From Kordia periserrulae (lineage in GTDB: Bacteria > Bacteroidota > Bacteroidia > Flavobacteriales > Flavobacteriaceae), in assembly GCF_003054265.1 (NCBI RefSeq), contig NZ_QBKT01000005.1:124001-188000 (forward strand): a stretch of DNA of 64,000 nucleotides. The letters are read 5' to 3'. The position numbers and the translations under genes are program-made. The notes beneath the pieces are model-generated. The model was not told where the DNA came from, searched no databases, and was given only the letters and a program-made list of their open reading frames with translations. Of the stretch, positions 54,295 to 60,726 are shown piece by piece; position 1 is the stretch's first letter, and each line of letters begins with the position of its first letter.

Positions 54295-55107
54295 ATGAGA
54301 AAGAAAACAGCACAATTTTTAGTATGCGCATTGCTTTTATGCGTTTCTATTAGCGGAATGGCGCAAGGAGCCATCAGCGGATTTTACAATGTAAAAGGAA
54401 CAGCAACTTTGGTCTTAGGTGCTGGATTTGAAGATTCAAAAAACTATTTTATCGGTCGCGTACGAAGCGATTTAAGTCGAAATCTATACAGTGTTTCTCT
54501 CTTTGGAATTTACGGAATTAGTAATCGCCTTAACGTACAAGCGTCTTTGCCATACTTATCAAGCGGAGAGCAAAACGGATTGCAAGATGCACAAATCTTT
54601 CTCAAATACAGAGCCTTTCAAGCACAACGAGAAACTTCCAAACTAGAAGTATCATTCGCAACAGGATTTTCTACAAATGTGAGCGATTACCGAATTGGTG
54701 GACTCAACGATTTGGGACAACAAGCTAAAATTTTAGAAACGCGCGCAATGTTGCATTATCAAAAAAACTCAGGCTGGTTTGCTACAGTGCAAAGTGGTTT
54801 TTCGTTCAAATTTGAAGAAGTTCCGAACAGTTTTCCATTTACACTCAAACTAGGAAAGGCAAGCGCCAAAGGATATTTTGATGTTTGGTACGACTTTCAA
54901 TACGCTTTTGGCGGAATTGACTATCGTGGCACACCACGACCACAAAACTTCAGAGAATTAGGCGTGAATTTCCACAAAATCGGCGGAACCTACCATTTTC
55001 CGTTATCCAAAACTTCAGGAATTTACATTTCACCTTCCTACGTTATTGACGGGCGAAATGTTTTTCAAGGATTCGCATATCACGCAGGTTTTACTTATCA
55101 GTTGTAA
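54295..55107 (+). CDS. Outer-membrane beta-barrel protein of unknown function
   Basis: This 270-residue exported protein has a signal peptide (MRKKTAQFLVCALLLCVSIS...MAQ) and strands of alternating polar and aromatic residues that look like a small barrel (NYFIGRVRSDLSRNLYSVSL; LNVQASLPYLSSGEQ; IFLKYRAFQAQRETSKLEVS). It ends YHAGFTYQL with a terminal hydrophobic residue, the barrel-insertion pattern. The SLPYLSSGEQNGLQDAQIFL segment resembles proteins annotated as transporters of the meta-pathway phenol-degradation type. The 44-bp gap after the DDAH-like gene could mean co-transcription. Function is unknown. Confidence 0.6.
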   Translation: MRKKTAQFLVCALLLCVSISGMAQGAISGFYNVKGTATLVLGAGFEDSKNYFIGRVRSDLSRNLYSVSLFGIYGISNRLNVQASLPYLSSGEQNGLQDAQIFLKYRAFQAQRETSKLEVSFATGFSTNVSDYRIGGLNDLGQQAKILETRAMLHYQKNSGWFATVQSGFSFKFEEVPNSFPFTLKLGKASAKGYFDVWYDFQYAFGGIDYRGTPRPQNFRELGVNFHKIGGTYHFPLSKTSGIYISPSYVIDGRNVFQGFAYHAGFTYQL

Positions 55108-55173
55108 AAGCTTTACGCTTTCCTATAAAGCTCTATTAGCTTTACTTTTATTTTCTACATAAATAAAGTTACT

Positions 55174-55179
55174 TAATTA
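55174..55179 (+). repeat. Target-site duplication left of MITE 1
   Basis: TAATTA precedes the element at 55180 and recurs at 55394-55399. The sequence is palindromic, so it is weaker evidence alone than the duplication around the second element. Confidence 0.6.
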
Positions 55180-55393
55180 ACGTGAGTTCAACTTAAGAAA
55201 TCACTATGCAATTCATAATTCACTGAGAAATAACTAATTGTCCGTTCGAGCGCAGACGAGAACAGCTAAGAATTGATAATTTCAAAGGAATCTCGGTAGC
55301 TTCGCTCGGTATCTACGATAATGCTCGATTTGACATTGAGCATAATTTATTAGTAATCAACTACATAATAAAATAGTTATATCGAACTCACGT
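55180..55393. mobile_element. MITE-like element, copy 1 (214 bp)
   Basis: This element has no coding capacity. The left end is ACGTGAGTTCAACTTAAG and the right end, reverse-complemented, is ACGTGAGTTCGATATAAC, so the terminal inverted repeats are about 12 bp. It differs from copy 2 (58642-58855) at five positions by eye, with no gaps. It is bounded by TAATTA on both sides. A transposase would have to come from elsewhere; none is in the window. Confidence 0.85.
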
Positions 55394-57072
55394 TAATTAG
55401 ATGAATACACATAAACAGCACCTGCATTTAGCAATGAATTATTAGTTTGATTTCCATTAATTCCTGTGGCGTTGCTTCTTTCAGAATAAGCACCAACGGC
55501 TAATAGCTCACCAGTTCCAGAAATTGATACTCCGGTGCCAAACCGATCAGAGCCATCTGTATTGGACGCTTTTAAATAAGCATGTTGTGTCCAAACACTA
55601 CCATCATTAATAAAAATATATGCAGCACCTGAATTGGAGGCAGAAGTATTATTTTGATTTCCATTAACACCAGTAGCATTGCTAGCTTCTCTGTTAGATC
55701 CAACCAATAATGCATTGCCGTTATTCGATAAACTTATAGAAGTTCCAAAATTATAATTAGCTCCAGAATTTGAGGCTTTAAAATAAACAGTTTGTGTCCA
55801 GATTGTTCCTGATCTAGAAAATAAATAAACAGCTCCAGCTCCATAAGCTGAACTATCTGTTTGATCTCCATCAATCCCACTTGTAGCACTTCCTTCTCTC
55901 ATTGCTCCAACAGCCATTATATTACCATCGCTAGAAAAACTAATCGAATCTCCAAAGGTGTAACCATTTCCTGGATTAGAAGCTTTTAAAAAAGCCTCTT
56001 GTGACCAAGTTGTTCCTGATCGTGTAAAAACATAAACTGCGCCACTTTGTGATACAGTAGTGCTTTCAAAATTAGCACCAACGGCTAATGTATTTCCATC
56101 ATCTGATAATGCTACTGAATGACCAAAAAAAATGAAAAGACTTGTGTTAGAAGCTTTTAAATACGCTTCTTGTGACCAAGTAGTGCCAACTCTAGTAAAT
56201 ATATATGAAGCTCCACTACTAAGCGAGGAATTATTAGTTTGATCTCCGTTAACACCATTAGCATTACTAGCTTCAGATCTAGCACCAACCGCTAATGTGT
56301 TACCATCATAAGAAAGCGCAACCGACCATCCAAAATCATCATCACCTTCAGCATTTGATGCTTTAATATATGCCTCTTGTGACCAAGTTGTTCCTGTTCT
56401 TGTAAAAACATAAACAGCTCCGCTGTCAGACGCGGAATTATCAGCTTCATTACCGTTAATCCCAGTAGCACTGCTGTCTTCTCCAAATGCGCCAACAGCA
56501 AGTGTGTTTCCATCTCCAGATAAACTTAGACTATTGCTAAAAAAATCAGACGCATTGGTATTGGATGCTGTTATAAATGCTTGTTGTGACCAAGTTGTTC
56601 CTGTTCTTATAAATATATAAACAGCTCCTGCATTGCTTGATCTTTGGCGGGCACCAACCGCCATTGTATTGCCATCATCAGAAAGAGAAACTCTCCATCC
56701 AAGATAATCATCCGTTGCTGTATTTGATGCCTTTATATAATCGATATTGCTTGAGCTATCATAATTAATACTAATAATTTCATTTAATGTAAGTTGCCCA
56801 CTACCATCTTCTTCAATACATACCCATTTAGAATTTTGATAAAAACAAGTACTGTTTCTAGACATATCAAAAACGATAGTTCCATCCACAGGAGGATTGC
56901 CATTACCATCTGTAACAGATTCCACATTGGTTACACGTGGAAGTACTAAACCAGTATTATTTACAGATGTGACATCTAGTGTCCCTTTAGGATCTGTTGT
57001 ATTTATACCTACTTGAGCCTGAATAAGTAAAGAAAAAAAAAGGAAAGAGAGTAGTGTAATTATATTTTTCAT
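55393..57072 (-). CDS. FG-GAP-type seven-repeat beta-propeller secreted protein
   Basis: This 559-residue exported protein (MKNIITLLSFLFFSLLIQAQ) starts with a Bacteroidota head (VGINTTDPKGTLDVTSVNN; TIVFDMSRNSTCFYQNSKWV) also seen on phage-tail-fibre-like and surface proteins. It is followed by exactly seven repeats of about 60 residues, each with SxDGNTxAVGA, GAVYVFTRTGTTWSQ and LKASN. Seven blades fit a closed beta-propeller of the FG-GAP/integrin kind. The stop codon is made at the junction with MITE 1: two bases belong to the target duplication and one to the element. The end YVYSSN therefore may not be the original one. The function is probably binding or adhesion. Confidence 0.8.
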   Translation of the reverse strand: MKNIITLLSFLFFSLLIQAQVGINTTDPKGTLDVTSVNNTGLVLPRVTNVESVTDGNGNPPVDGTIVFDMSRNSTCFYQNSKWVCIEEDGSGQLTLNEIISINYDSSSNIDYIKASNTATDDYLGWRVSLSDDGNTMAVGARQRSSNAGAVYIFIRTGTTWSQQAFITASNTNASDFFSNSLSLSGDGNTLAVGAFGEDSSATGINGNEADNSASDSGAVYVFTRTGTTWSQEAYIKASNAEGDDDFGWSVALSYDGNTLAVGARSEASNANGVNGDQTNNSSLSSGASYIFTRVGTTWSQEAYLKASNTSLFIFFGHSVALSDDGNTLAVGANFESTTVSQSGAVYVFTRSGTTWSQEAFLKASNPGNGYTFGDSISFSSDGNIMAVGAMREGSATSGIDGDQTDSSAYGAGAVYLFSRSGTIWTQTVYFKASNSGANYNFGTSISLSNNGNALLVGSNREASNATGVNGNQNNTSASNSGAAYIFINDGSVWTQHAYLKASNTDGSDRFGTGVSISGTGELLAVGAYSERSNATGINGNQTNNSLLNAGAVYVYSSN

Positions 57073-57582
57073 GTAGTGTTAGTTTTGGTCGACGGTAATC
57101 TATAAAGTTATTAAAATAATTAGCAATAAAAAACAATTTTATTTTTAGCTTATTGGTGCTTAAAATTTAAAATATTCACCTTCTTTATATTGTAGAAAAT
57201 AAGCCTAAAGATCAAATTATTAATTTACTATTGTTAAGTGTTTAGAATAGGAATATACCAAGTTATTACTCATGGAACAGCTACTTAGCTGGTATTGATT
57301 GTGCAGATTTTGGAGAAAAAATATGCTTCATGTATGTTTTACCTACCAATTGTAATATCCCGAAAGGATAAAAATAAAAAAACTGAATGTCAATTAATTA
57401 CGAATAAGAACGTGCATTAGCATTTTTTTTTCGTGAAGGAAAATACTACTAAATTCACAAGATGTTTGAAAGGTTCATAATAGTATCAATATATCATTGA
57501 AAAAAGCCAAATTAAATTAGCATAATTTTAGTTTTTATGTAATTTTACCATCTCAAAAATAATTCTAAAATAGGTACGCAAA
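57073..57582. other. Gene-free 510-bp region upstream of ctlX
   Basis: This AT-rich region lies between divergent genes, so it should hold both promoters. I see no RNA gene, terminator or repeat. Short open stretches (for example around 57290-57372) end quickly and do not resemble any family. It could be the scar of an older insertion, but nothing proves this. Confidence 0.5.
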
Positions 57583-58518
57583 ATGCAGCAAATTACCAAT
57601 ACAATTTTGATGGTACGTCCCGTTGCGTTTCGGATGAACGAACAAACGGCTGTAAACAATTATTACCAAGAAACTATTGACGATTTACAACCCAAAACCA
57701 TTCAACAAAAAGCACAAGAAGAATTTGATGCCTATGTAGAAAAATTACGTGGAATTGGTGTCAACGTGGTGGTAATTCAAGATGAACAAGAGCCTGACAC
57801 GCCCGATTCTATCTTTCCAAATAACTGGATTTCTTTTCACCAAAGTGGCAATGTGGGTATTTATCCAATGTTTGCTGAAAACCGTCGTTTGGAACGTAGG
57901 GAAGATGCGCTAGAAGTATTGGAAGCGCAAGGTTTTCATATTGAGAATGTGGTTGATTATACGTCGGCGGAAGAAGAAGGTGTTTTCTTAGAAGGAACAG
58001 GAAGTATGGTGCTTGATAGAGTCAACAGAAAAGCCTATTGCGCTTTATCACCAAGAGCGGATGAAGATTTGTTCATTGAGTTTTGTGAAGATTTTGAGTA
58101 TTCGCCAGTCATTTTTACAGCGTATCAAACGGTAGAAGGAGAGCGTTTGCCAATTTATCATACGAATGTAATGATGTGTTTGGCAGAAACGTTTGCAGTG
58201 ATATGTTTGGATTGTATCGATGACAAAAAAGAGCGTAAAATCGTGGAAAAGCATCTGAAAGAAGATGGCAAAGAAATCATTCGCATCACAGAAAAGCAAG
58301 TCGAAAACTTTGCAGGAAACATGTTACAGGTGTTAGGCGCAAATGACGAGCCGTATTTAGTGATGAGTCAATCTGCGTATGATTCGTTAACCAAAGAGCA
58401 AATATCACGTATTGAAAAACACTGTAAAATACTATCAAGTTCTATAGAAACTATTGAAACTTGCGGTGGAGGAAGCGCACGGTGCATGATGGCTGAGGTT
58501 TTCTTACCGAAAAAATGA
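57583..58518 (+). CDS. ctlX: Citrulline-utilisation hydrolase CtlX (pentein superfamily)
   Basis: This 311-residue amidinotransferase-fold enzyme matches the CtlX type: TNTILMVRPVAFRMNEQTAV at the N-terminus, TPDSIFPNNWISFHQSGNVG, the acidic motif VFLEGTGSMVLDRVN, the catalytic His region LPIYHTNVMMCLAETFAVI, and the nucleophile Cys in GGGSARCMMAEVFLP at the end. CtlX proteins are named for citrulline utilisation, a ureido/guanidino hydrolysis step of arginine or citrulline breakdown. A hairpin begins directly after the stop, with a strong terminator at 58599-58635. Its usual partner, a DDAH-like gene, lies at 53333. Confidence 0.88.
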   Translation: MQQITNTILMVRPVAFRMNEQTAVNNYYQETIDDLQPKTIQQKAQEEFDAYVEKLRGIGVNVVVIQDEQEPDTPDSIFPNNWISFHQSGNVGIYPMFAENRRLERREDALEVLEAQGFHIENVVDYTSAEEEGVFLEGTGSMVLDRVNRKAYCALSPRADEDLFIEFCEDFEYSPVIFTAYQTVEGERLPIYHTNVMMCLAETFAVICLDCIDDKKERKIVEKHLKEDGKEIIRITEKQVENFAGNMLQVLGANDEPYLVMSQSAYDSLTKEQISRIEKHCKILSSSIETIETCGGGSARCMMAEVFLPKK

Positions 58519-58538
58519 ATTCCTGCGTAGGCCGGAAT
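58519..58538 (+). repeat. REP-like hairpin after ctlX
   Basis: ATTCCTGC-GTAG-GCCGGAAT forms a stem with one mismatch and is followed by CTCACA, as at 26667-26686. A separate hairpin (AATGTCACA pairing with TGTGACATT) follows at 58551-58576, without a T tract. Confidence 0.5.
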
Positions 58539-58598
58539 CTCACAAAATTCAATGTCACATAAAGTTTTGTGACATTAATCTATAAACTGTGTAAGTTT

Positions 58599-58635
58599 TA
58601 AAAACTCAGGATAAAATTCAATCCTGAGTTTTTTT
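58599..58635 (+). terminator. Rho-independent terminator of ctlX
   Basis: AAAACTCAGGAT pairs with ATCCTGAGTTTT around an 8-base loop and is followed by T's. The target duplication of MITE 2 starts at the next base (58636). Confidence 0.88.
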
Positions 58636-58641
58636 ATTTTA
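58636..58641 (+). repeat. Target-site duplication left of MITE 2
   Basis: ATTTTA here is matched by ATTTTA at 58856-58861, directly after the element. Confidence 0.8.
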
Positions 58642-58855
58642 ACGTGAGTTCGACTTAAGAAATCACTATGCAATTCATAATTCACTGATAAATAACTAAT
58701 TGTACGTTCGAGCGCAGTCGAGAACAGCTAAGAATTGATAATTTCAAAGGAATCTCGGTAGCTTCGCTCGGTATCTACGATAATGCTCGATTTGACATTG
58801 ATCATAATTTATTAGTAATCAACTACATAATAAAATAGTTATATCGAACTCACGT
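58642..58855. mobile_element. MITE-like element, copy 2 (214 bp)
   Basis: This element has the same length and orientation as copy 1, with 12-bp terminal inverted repeats (ACGTGAGTTCGA and its complement). It is flanked by a 6-bp direct repeat, ATTTTA, that differs from the one around copy 1, which is the hallmark of independent transposition. It includes an internal segment, GTTCGAGCGCAGTCGAGAAC, but no open frame of note. Confidence 0.9.
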
Positions 58856-58868
58856 ATTTTATTAATGC

Positions 58869-60302
58869 TTACCTAAGTACTCCTAAATTAATCATTTCAA
58901 AAGTCCATGAAACTCCAGCTCCAAGACTTATAGGTAAAATAGAAACACCTGCTGTTAAAGACAACCCAGGACCACAGTTACTCCAATTAGTAGTGTCCAT
59001 TGGGTAATTACCAGATATATTTACCCCGACCCCAGCACCTGCGATTGGTGTATCAAAGGAAACTCTTGTATACACTCCAAACCCTTTAAGACTTTCAGGT
59101 GTAGATTTTGGGAAAATTCCAAGAGCAACTCCAATATCAGCACTTACATTTGTTTCGAACCCTGCAGAAGTTATTAGAACTAGCATAGAACGGTTGGTAC
59201 CATCTAAACTGAACAGAAAACCTATACTATAACCGATTGAAAGAAAAAATGAAGCATCAGCTTCTATTCCTATAAAAAGTGCAGGCCCACCTTTTCCATT
59301 AGGAGATTGTGTATTTGGAGCGATAATATTTTTAAACCCAGTCATGGCTGGGCTTTTTTGGAAGTTCTCCACCTTATTTGTTAATGCTCTATCGAGATTA
59401 ATTCCCCAAAATAATGAGCTTGGGCCAACAGGTATTTTATTTAGATCATCTCTAATACTGCTTGCTTTTCCGTGTAAATCATTATTTTTGGCATATTCAG
59501 CCAATTCTTTCATTTTAGCTTTTTGTGAATCAGATGGAGGTGTGGGTATTGCTCTTGCTCTTGAAACATATGGTTGTGTTAGTCCTACTAACGCTTGGAA
59601 ATTAATCATATTTAATACTCCATGTCCACTTGCATTTTCTCCATAATACTGCAGACCAAAACGTGCCTTAACATTATCATAAGCTGTTATTTTTTGTTCG
59701 AAAATTAATTTTTCATTTTCCCAAAGTTTCAAATTATCCTCTTGAAAAACCATAACTACCTTGTGTAAATTAAAATTCGCTCCAATCGAAAGTTCTGAAT
59801 CACCCATGAATACCCAGTTAGATTCATCACCTTTAGGATCTATATAATAATATTTTCCGAATGGTTCATATTCTCCGTTTTTATCTTTAGCATAGTGAAG
59901 CATTAGTCCACCTGGTAGTATTGCAGAAACACTACCCGTATCATCCTTATTTATATTATGAACAGTTATTGCAAAAGAAAAAGTAACGCTTAGAGGGATA
60001 TTCTTTTCTTTATCATTTAATGTAAATGATTTGTTGAGAGTTGCAATAACGCCTCCACCTTCATTATTTAAAAATCCAAACTCTATACCGTTTTGGAGAA
60101 ATACACAACTCTTTTTTACAGGAATTTTTTGTGAATTATTATTTTCACGTATAACACTCCATTCAGAGGATCGTTGATTAAAAGGATTAAAATTGACTTT
60201 GTCTCCATAGCCTATGCCTACCTTGTCCTCATCTCTTTTTCGTGTTGGATGTAGCTCTATTAATTCAAAAATTTCGGGACTAAAACCATATTGTTCTTCC
60301 AT
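58869..60302 (-). CDS. Large protein with LamG/ConA-like domain and Gly-rich C-terminal domain, no signal peptide
   Basis: I do not recognise this 477-residue protein as a whole. Residues about 75-240 look like a concanavalin/laminin-G jelly roll (SVTFSFAITVHNIN; LHKVVMVFQEDNLKLWENEK; ARFGLQYYGENASGHGVLNM). A helical linker follows (about 255-310; DSQKAKMKELAEYAKNNDLH). The last 140 residues are a glycine-rich beta domain (FFLSIGYSIGFLFSLDG; GAGVGVNISGNYPMDTTNW; LSLTAGVSILPISLGAGVSW). The start (MEEQYGFSPEIFELIEL) has no signal peptide, lipobox or T9SS tail. The gene is alone, bounded by MITE 2 on one side and a 424-bp gap on the other. It may be accessory DNA, an effector or a contractile-system cargo; that is conjecture. 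Confidence 0.6.
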   Translation of the reverse strand: MEEQYGFSPEIFELIELHPTRKRDEDKVGIGYGDKVNFNPFNQRSSEWSVIRENNNSQKIPVKKSCVFLQNGIEFGFLNNEGGGVIATLNKSFTLNDKEKNIPLSVTFSFAITVHNINKDDTGSVSAILPGGLMLHYAKDKNGEYEPFGKYYYIDPKGDESNWVFMGDSELSIGANFNLHKVVMVFQEDNLKLWENEKLIFEQKITAYDNVKARFGLQYYGENASGHGVLNMINFQALVGLTQPYVSRARAIPTPPSDSQKAKMKELAEYAKNNDLHGKASSIRDDLNKIPVGPSSLFWGINLDRALTNKVENFQKSPAMTGFKNIIAPNTQSPNGKGGPALFIGIEADASFFLSIGYSIGFLFSLDGTNRSMLVLITSAGFETNVSADIGVALGIFPKSTPESLKGFGVYTRVSFDTPIAGAGVGVNISGNYPMDTTNWSNCGPGLSLTAGVSILPISLGAGVSWTFEMINLGVLR

Positions 60303-60726
60303 TGGTGTTTATTTTAAATGTTTATTGTTAGTACTCATTAAGAATTATAAATGGATTTCTAGAAAACTTACTGGAAATACTATTTCTTTAAATTTTAATA
60401 CAAAGGATGTTAATCAAGCTTCATTATTGAGAAATAATATAAGCTAAATCTAATGTATTGTTTAGGTAGAATTTCAGGCATAAATACCCAATTTACAATA
60501 AGAGTAATTACGCGCTAGTTCTTTTTTTTAGCGAGCTATATATTTCTTTTAAGATACTATCATGAATTTTCCTTAGGTTCGTTTTCTTTTAGTAACTCTA
60601 CTCAACCCAAAAAGAAAATGACTGTTGCGTGTTTGTAACGCTTGCAAAATAAAAACATAAAAAAGCCTGAGAAGTCAAATTTCTCAGGCTTTTTCTATAA
60701 GTTCTAACAATATAACAATCTTGAAA
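60303..60726. other. Gene-free 424-bp region
   Basis: This AT-rich region is upstream of the LamG-like gene (minus) and downstream of the gene at 60727. It holds one clear terminator (60657-60697). No further gene, RNA or repeat was recognised. Confidence 0.5.
60657..60697 (-). terminator. Rho-independent terminator of the gene at 60727
   Basis: AAAAAGCCTGAGAA pairs with TTCTCAGGCTTTTT around a 7-base loop. T runs lie on both strands, so it may act in both directions. Confidence 0.88.

What the first reader, a model, noticed from the sequence alone, without database searches (positions are those of the whole stretch)
55180..58855. Two 214-bp MITE-like elements with separate 6-bp target duplications
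The segments 55180-55393 and 58642-58855 have equal length and differ at five positions by eye. They share 12-bp terminal inverted repeats (ACGTGAGTTCGA). Each is flanked by its own direct repeat: TAATTA for copy 1, ATTTTA for copy 2. Different duplications around the same element imply two transposition events, not a block duplication. Neither copy codes for protein, so a transposase in trans is required. I cannot match the ends to a named IS family.
Basis: seen in the sequence. Interest (0 to 1): 0.78.

Follow-up and report, generated by a model that had tools for sequence, protein, structure and literature searches.

The report
IS982-type MITE family in Kordia
Two near-identical 214-base stretches are copies of a small gene-less jumping DNA element, scattered through a marine bacterium's genome, whose ends and target footprint match a known transposon family (IS982); it is real, but of an already known kind.

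Summary
Window 55180-55393 and 58642-58855 are 214-bp copies differing at 5 positions, with 12-bp terminal inverted repeats (one mismatch in copy 1) and separate 6-bp duplications. They belong to a dispersed family: 46 matching pieces in this genome. Of 27 copies with two settable ends, 17 have an exact 6-7 bp duplication (shuffled flank pairing: mean 1.6); 15 of those 17 fit TA-N2/3-TA. One copy has a clean empty site in two relatives. Both MITE ends match both ends of one such IS over about 22 bp; the interior does not. This assembly holds only an eroded IS982 transposase fragment, so the copies look stranded. The interior is mosaic, and at two insertion sites shared with a sister species one inner block differs, best read as gene conversion. 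IS982-derived MITEs are published for Cardinium (PMC9769881): a new member of a known kind.

The parts
55174..55179 (.). target site duplication of copy 1, left (TAATTA)
55180..55393 (+). MITE copy 1, 214 bp; left tip corresponds to the end upstream of the IS982 transposase, right tip to the downstream end
55394..55399 (.). target site duplication of copy 1, right (TAATTA)
58636..58641 (.). target site duplication of copy 2, left (ATTTTA), directly after the T-run of a terminator-like hairpin
58642..58855 (+). MITE copy 2, 214 bp
58856..58861 (.). target site duplication of copy 2, right (ATTTTA)
58600..58633 (+). terminator-like hairpin after the DDAH-like gene; copy 2 sits directly downstream
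   Evidence: by eye, similar hairpins follow this gene in several relatives
55244..55263 (+). inner module A of copy 1 (GTTCGAGCGCAGACGAGAAC); most other copies read GTTCGAGCGCAGTCGAGAAC, the place where an IS110-type element interrupts at least three family copies
55291..55328 (+). inner module B of copy 1, 'medium' form; 'short' or 'long' forms occupy the same slot in other copies
55393..57072 (-). 559-aa FG-GAP-repeat gene beside copy 1; no DNA match at this place in 10 of 10 relatives (9 have the neighbouring blocks nearly joined, G007 has 1.3 kb of other DNA). Its stop codon is made of duplication bases plus the last MITE base
58869..60302 (-). 477-aa gene beside copy 2, no Pfam match; absent in 6 of 10 relatives in which the next conserved gene follows closely; 1 has 1.5 kb of other DNA, 3 could not be judged in the fetched stretch

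Best explanation
The two segments are copies of a non-autonomous transposable element (MITE) that was moved by an IS982-family DDE transposase of the subgroup with ACGTGAGTTCGA tips. The enzyme recognises about 20 bp at each end (two distinct subterminal sequences, one per end), cuts the element out or copies it, and joins it to an AT-rich, mostly TA-N2/3-TA target with a 6-7 bp stagger, which repair turns into the flanking duplication. The two window copies are separate insertions next to gene 3' ends. Shown: copy number, ends, duplications, one empty site, match of both ends to an IS982 element. Inferred: the enzyme steps, and that the source IS has been lost from this lineage, since the assembly holds only an eroded transposase fragment.
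For: Ends: MITE 1-22 matches the transposase-upstream end of IS982 element L138 at 21 of 22, and 194-214 its downstream end at 21 of 21, in the same arrangement. Intact ACG-tipped relatives L111 and L196 score 258.9 and 259.5 bits on NF033520, cut-off 130. Footprint: of elements with two equal tips and an exact duplication, ACG tips have 6 (7 of 9), 7 (1) or 8 bp (1), ACC tips 5 bp in 25 of 27. In Confluentibacter flavum 16 of 16 contig-end copies show a TA-N2/3-TA half site. MITE: 17 of 27 exact 6-7 bp, 15 of these 17 TA-N2/3-TA; in relatives 10 of 16 printed elements have an exact 6-7 bp duplication, not counting L054 (several overlapping end pairs, none with one) and L063 (same as L056). 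Empty site: TTTAGTATTTA[MITE]TATTTAATACC here against TTTAGTTTTTAATAC in G006 (one base different in the target) and TTTAGTTATTTAATA in G002. Recent movement in a sister: four fetched G005 copies, identical outside the module columns, sit at four sites with their own duplications.
Against: No intact IS982 transposase in this assembly: one fragment of 88.3 bits, below cut-off, with a stop; no match at E <= 1e-40 to the G005 transposase. Similarity to the IS stops after about 22 bp, so the interior was not shown to come from the parent. L138, the best end match, has a broken transposase gene. 10 of 27 copies lack an exact duplication (one, L004, because I set its ends wrongly), and copy 2's own duplication is one of two that do not fit TA-N2/3-TA. 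In one search, 46 of 82 IS982 rows had no exact duplication. The tip base / duplication length link rests on about two changes on the transposase tree. The two window copies have no clean empty site. Mobility was not tested.
Confidence: 0.93

Rival explanations
1. A REP/REPIN-type element moved by a RAYT (Y1 transposase): the inner palindromes TCGAGCGCAGTCGA are the mobile unit and the outer ends are incidental.
For: The 14-mer TCGAGCGCAGTCGA occurs 79 times exactly against 0 for the control, partly outside the MITE copies listed; short-form copies carry it twice in inverted order.
Against: Duplications sit at the outer tips, not at the palindromes, and the tips match IS982 ends. REPINs are not expected to leave 6-7 bp duplications (recalled). 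RAYT genes were not searched for.
Confidence: 0.03
2. A structured RNA or regulatory (terminator-like) unit kept by selection and copied with neighbouring DNA.
For: Either strand of copy 2 folds more stably than shuffles (z -3.8 and -4.9); of 29 copies 13 lie between convergent and 1 between divergent genes.
Against: No Rfam match over the unit; fold stability follows from the inverted ends; copies have their own duplications and, but for orthologous pairs, unrelated flanks. The orientation bias is weak when intergenic length is allowed for (p 0.024; 0.0026 by gene-pair counts).
Confidence: 0.03
3. The two window copies arose by one block duplication, or bound a composite element that carried the genes between them.
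For: They are the same way round and 3.2 kb apart, 98% identical, and each lies beside a gene absent at this place in the relatives that could be judged.
Against: Flanks are unrelated; the duplications differ and are complete at each copy, and the outermost flanks do not match each other; the DDAH-like gene between them follows the gene left of copy 1 in all 10 relatives, G007 with 1.3 kb between.
Confidence: 0.01

Closest known systems
[quoted passage not shown] read parts 1 and 2 of 3)
   Same: About 240 bp, no gene, ends match an IS982-family element (ISCca4), dispersed and mostly intergenic, in Bacteroidota.
   Different: There 169 copies and 7 intact ISCca4 in the same genome; here 27 copies with two ends set, plus fragments, and no intact parent in the assembly. 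Here the interior is a mosaic of exchangeable modules; the parts I read describe nothing like it.
IS982 family of insertion sequences (PMC7335449; read abstract, sections 4 and 5, and passages)
   Same: About 1 kb, 'AC' tips in most members, one DDE transposase, variable direct repeats; ACC- and ACG-tipped elements tested here score far above the NCBIfam IS982 cut-off.
   Different: The paper gives direct repeats of 2-10 bp over the family; the parts I read tie no third tip base to repeat length. The MITE has no transposase.
BrickBuilt MITE of Porphyromonas gingivalis (PMC4596501; seen in a search listing and in passages of the review PMC10969869 only)
   Same: Bacteroidota MITE, strictly intergenic according to the review.
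   Different: Contains a minisatellite according to its title; I saw no link to IS982.

Membership tests
MITE | Short, no coding capacity | tested here: met
   214 bp; longest stop-to-stop stretches 49 and 48 codons
MITE | Terminal inverted repeats | tested here: met
   12 bp, perfect in copy 2, one mismatch in copy 1
MITE | Target site duplications at many sites | tested here: met
   17 of 27 exact, 24 of 27 with up to one mismatch; shuffled pairing of exact ones mean 1.6
MITE | Multiple dispersed copies | tested here: met
   46 matching pieces in the own genome; matches in 9 of 11 genomes of the genus, own included
MITE | Empty sites in relatives | tested here: met
   one copy (L012) in G006 and G002; the window copies and L014 gave no clean site; the other copies were not tried
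IS982-derived MITE | Ends match an IS982 element at both tips | tested here: met
   21 of 22 and 21 of 21 bp against L138
IS982-derived MITE | Same duplication length as the parent type | tested here: met
   6-7 bp in the MITE; 6-8 bp in 9 of 9 ACG-tipped IS982 with an exact duplication
IS982-derived MITE | Interior derived from the parent by deletion | tested here: not met
   no convincing match beyond the ends among 11 elements compared; not required of a MITE moved in trans
IS982-derived MITE | Intact parent transposase in the same genome | tested here: not met
   one fragment of 88.3 bits, below cut-off 130, with a stop; a collapsed repeat missing from the assembly cannot be excluded
IS982-derived MITE | Mobilised by an IS982 transposase | not testable with these tools
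   needs an experiment
REP/REPIN | Palindromic unit itself is the mobile element, with a RAYT gene | tested here: inconclusive
   palindrome is abundant but duplications sit at the outer tips; RAYT not searched

The most novel reading that the evidence does not exclude
The family behaves as a chimeric cassette: the same inner core is carried by two end types that answer to two different IS982 subgroups (ACG tips with 6-7 bp, ACC tips with 5 bp duplications), and inner modules are exchanged in place after insertion, so that a stranded MITE can change its transposase partner and its content by recombination among copies.
Probability: 0.4. Interest if true: 0.5.

Novelty: new member of a known kind. 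Interest (0 to 1): 0.32.

Why it matters
It names the transposase family of a repeat found in 9 of 11 genomes of a Kordia-like genus that has no intact parent in this strain's assembly. The two footprint classes seen in IS982 (tips ACG with 6-8 bp, tips ACC with 5 bp) offer a simple way to assign orphan MITEs. Orthologous copies that differ in an inner module are a small natural record of exchange among dispersed repeats.

Tried and rejected
Plasmid collection search with copy 2: no match. Rfam over 54800-59300: 4 weak matches at E <= 1, none over the unit. G002's five identical 1013-bp IS982 copies were first taken as the possible parent; rejected because their tips are ACC and their duplications 5 bp, though they led to the family. 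An exact unpaired tip at C4:451348 proved to be a 44-bp deletion remnant, not a transposon end. Composite-element and block-duplication ideas were rejected on duplications and unrelated flanks. That tip base and duplication length evolve together was tested on a tree and cannot be upheld as independent evidence: 1 supported contrast, 2 on the best tree. IS110 transposase domain PF02371 in the own genome: 0 matches, so the IS110 interior seems missing from the assembly. L014 gave no clean empty site: the DNA next to the element differs in the relatives. A promoter scan of the region found 14 sites against 16.4 in shuffles, none of them inside a MITE copy.

Literature searches: 'IS982 + MITE' (11 papers, all listed), 'IS982 family / target site duplication / miniature inverted-repeat' (15 of 275 listed), 'IS982 + direct repeats + terminal inverted repeats + target site', 'Kordia + insertion sequence', 'miniature inverted-repeat + Flavobacteri + non-autonomous', 'bridge RNA + IS110 + target + REP' (8 of 33 listed), 'Kordia + MITE' (unrelated by title). 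No title or abstract start listed told of a MITE in Kordia. I read only the parts named in Closest known systems and passages of PMC13305171 and PMC10969869.
Full report
What is there. Neither encodes a plausible protein, and no Rfam family matches the unit.

A dispersed family. In the window's own assembly (4.73 Mb, 38 contigs) copy 1 has 46 matching pieces at E <= 0.001, and the 12-base tip with up to one mismatch occurs 83 times against 9 for the pattern read backwards. I set both ends for 27 copies with ACG-type tips; the other pieces are partial, lie at contig ends, or have ACC tips. Of the 27, 17 have an exact 6-7 bp duplication and 24 have one with up to one mismatch; when left and right flanks are re-paired at random, the mean number of exact ones is 1.6 and the maximum of 2000 draws is 7. 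One miss, L004, is due to my setting its ends wrongly. Of the 17 exact duplications, 15 fit TA-N2/3-TA; copy 2 (ATTTTA) is one of the two that do not. Lengths vary: mostly 214 or 192 bp, two of 130-131 bp and a 44-bp remnant. Nine of 11 genomes of the genus, own included, match the element. One of these, G002, has the length and transposase coordinates of Kordia algicida OT-1, so the window is from a Kordia-like species.

Empty site. For copy L012, relatives G006 and G002 hold the joined flanks without the element and with one copy of the target, with a base difference in G006. For the two window copies this test fails for a telling reason. In 9 of 10 relatives the DNA blocks that match the gene left of copy 1 and the DDAH-like gene lie within about 100 bp of each other (G007 has 1.3 kb of other DNA there). 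In 6 of 10 the next conserved gene follows the DDAH-like gene within about 200 bp; one has 1.5 kb there, and three showed no match in the fetched stretch. So each window copy sits at the 3' end of a gene that these relatives lack at this place (559-aa FG-GAP-repeat protein; 477-aa protein without Pfam match). Because each copy has its own complete duplication, I read the genes and the MITEs as separate arrivals.

The parent. Searching the tips in relatives led to five 1013-bp elements in G002 with ACCTGAGTTCGA tips, 5-bp duplications and an IS982 transposase (278 bits on NF033520, cut-off 130). Wider searches with a transposase from G005 (best 80 of 193 relatives kept; 18 of 299 genomes) gave elements of two kinds. 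Of 82 rows with two equal tips (one element, L147, counted twice), those with ACC tips and an exact duplication show 5 bp in 25 of 27; those with ACG tips and an exact duplication show 6 (7 of 9), 7 (1) or 8 (1). In 46 of the 82 no exact duplication was found: 18 of these end at a contig end inside the target, and 13 are copies of one element in Bacteroidetes bacterium UKL13-3. Five further rows with unequal tips were left out. The 16 contig-end copies in Confluentibacter flavum all show a TA-N2/3-TA half site. The window MITE has ACG tips and 6-7 bp duplications; two ACC-tipped relatives in the same genome (L027, L029) have 5-bp duplications and share part of the interior (77-81% over 120-156 bp). 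Fisher's test gives p 6e-7, but on the transposase tree the tip changed only about twice, so this marks subgroups and does not prove that tip and stagger are linked. Both MITE ends match both ends of IS982 element L138 in the right arrangement; the match stops after about 22 bp.

Status of the transposase. The own assembly has a single IS982 fragment (88.3 bits, below cut-off, one stop), with no tip of 2 or fewer mismatches within 1.5 kb. The Kordia copies with ACG tips are damaged: L090 (2 stops), L091 (fused, one end lost), L092 (partial). So the family looks stranded here. In G005 four fetched copies are identical outside the module columns, at different sites with their own duplications, so it moved recently there although the only IS982 transposase found there is fused and lacks one end. 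A transposase hidden in collapsed repeats cannot be excluded: this assembly seems also to have lost the interior of an IS110 element.

Mosaic interior. Aligning 42 copies (27 from this genome, 15 from relatives) shows two inner slots with exchangeable modules of short, medium or long form between constant borders. On a tree of the rest of the element the module state of slot B needs 11 changes among 40 copies (least possible 2; shuffled labels 16.3), but the tree is weak (4 of 34 inner branches well supported), and supported branches force only 2-3 per state. The firmest evidence is two insertions shared with G006 at the same base (L017/L051, L018/L059): in both, slot B is medium here and short there. 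In L017 the difference runs on to the right end; in L018 the sequence right of the module is nearly the same, but the left half differs by a 30-bp deletion that is also seen in another G006 copy, L075. Conversion by other copies explains both; it is inferred, not shown.

Setting. Of 29 copies (27 ACG, 2 ACC), 13 lie between convergent, 15 between tandem and 1 between divergent gene pairs by a crude gene caller; against the window's own intergenic lengths 13 of 14 gives p 0.024. Copy 2 directly follows a terminator-like hairpin. Avoidance of promoters by selection is the simplest reading.

Comparison. IS982-derived MITEs are published for Cardinium (PMC9769881, parts 1-2 read). The IS982 review (PMC7335449, sections 4-5 and passages read) gives direct repeats of 2-10 bp without tying them to the third tip base in the parts I read. 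I therefore file this as a new member of a known kind. The mosaic core shared by ACG- and ACC-tipped MITEs is the part that might be new.

Noticed in passing
Own genome contig ends C10:1-78, C14:1-78, C3:538289-538366 and C13:1-110 (L031, L033, L034, L032): An IS110-type element sits at the same GA core of inner module A in at least three MITE-family copies, of both tip types. C13 and C10 look like the two halves of one copy (both flanked by TAATATC). The noncoding end holds GAGCGCA, equal to the target half site beside the junction; a relative in G003 (L236, 339-aa transposase, PF01548 and PF02371) has GAGTGAT at that place and GAGTGAT as its flank, so guide and target change together, as expected for a bridge RNA (PMC11208160, seen in a listing with abstract start only). 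One pair of elements only; no fold or loop was modelled..
   Followed up: partly
window 55108-57338 and about 58640-60700: Two genes (559 aa with FG-GAP repeats; 477 aa without Pfam match) lie on either side of a conserved DDAH-like gene here but not in the relatives that could be judged (9-10 and 6 of 10); each has a MITE at its 3' end.
   Followed up: partly
L014:1694-1751 and L012:3121-3169: Two further short dispersed repeats, about 57 and 45 bp, with many copies in several genomes of the genus.
   Followed up: no
G002 C1, e.g. L083, L086-L088: About 290-400 bp MITE-like elements with ACGTGAGTTCGA-like tip at one end and ACGTCAGTTCGA at the other and a different interior, many copies.
   Followed up: no
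G005 C1:5343736-5344416 (L091): An IS982 transposase frame runs on into an unrelated frame (679 aa in all) that looks like a replication protein by eye, apparently through a rearrangement.
   Followed up: no
L010 (C2:547899-548260): Beside a full copy lies a tandem repeat of its end plus flank: a local duplication after insertion.
   Followed up: no
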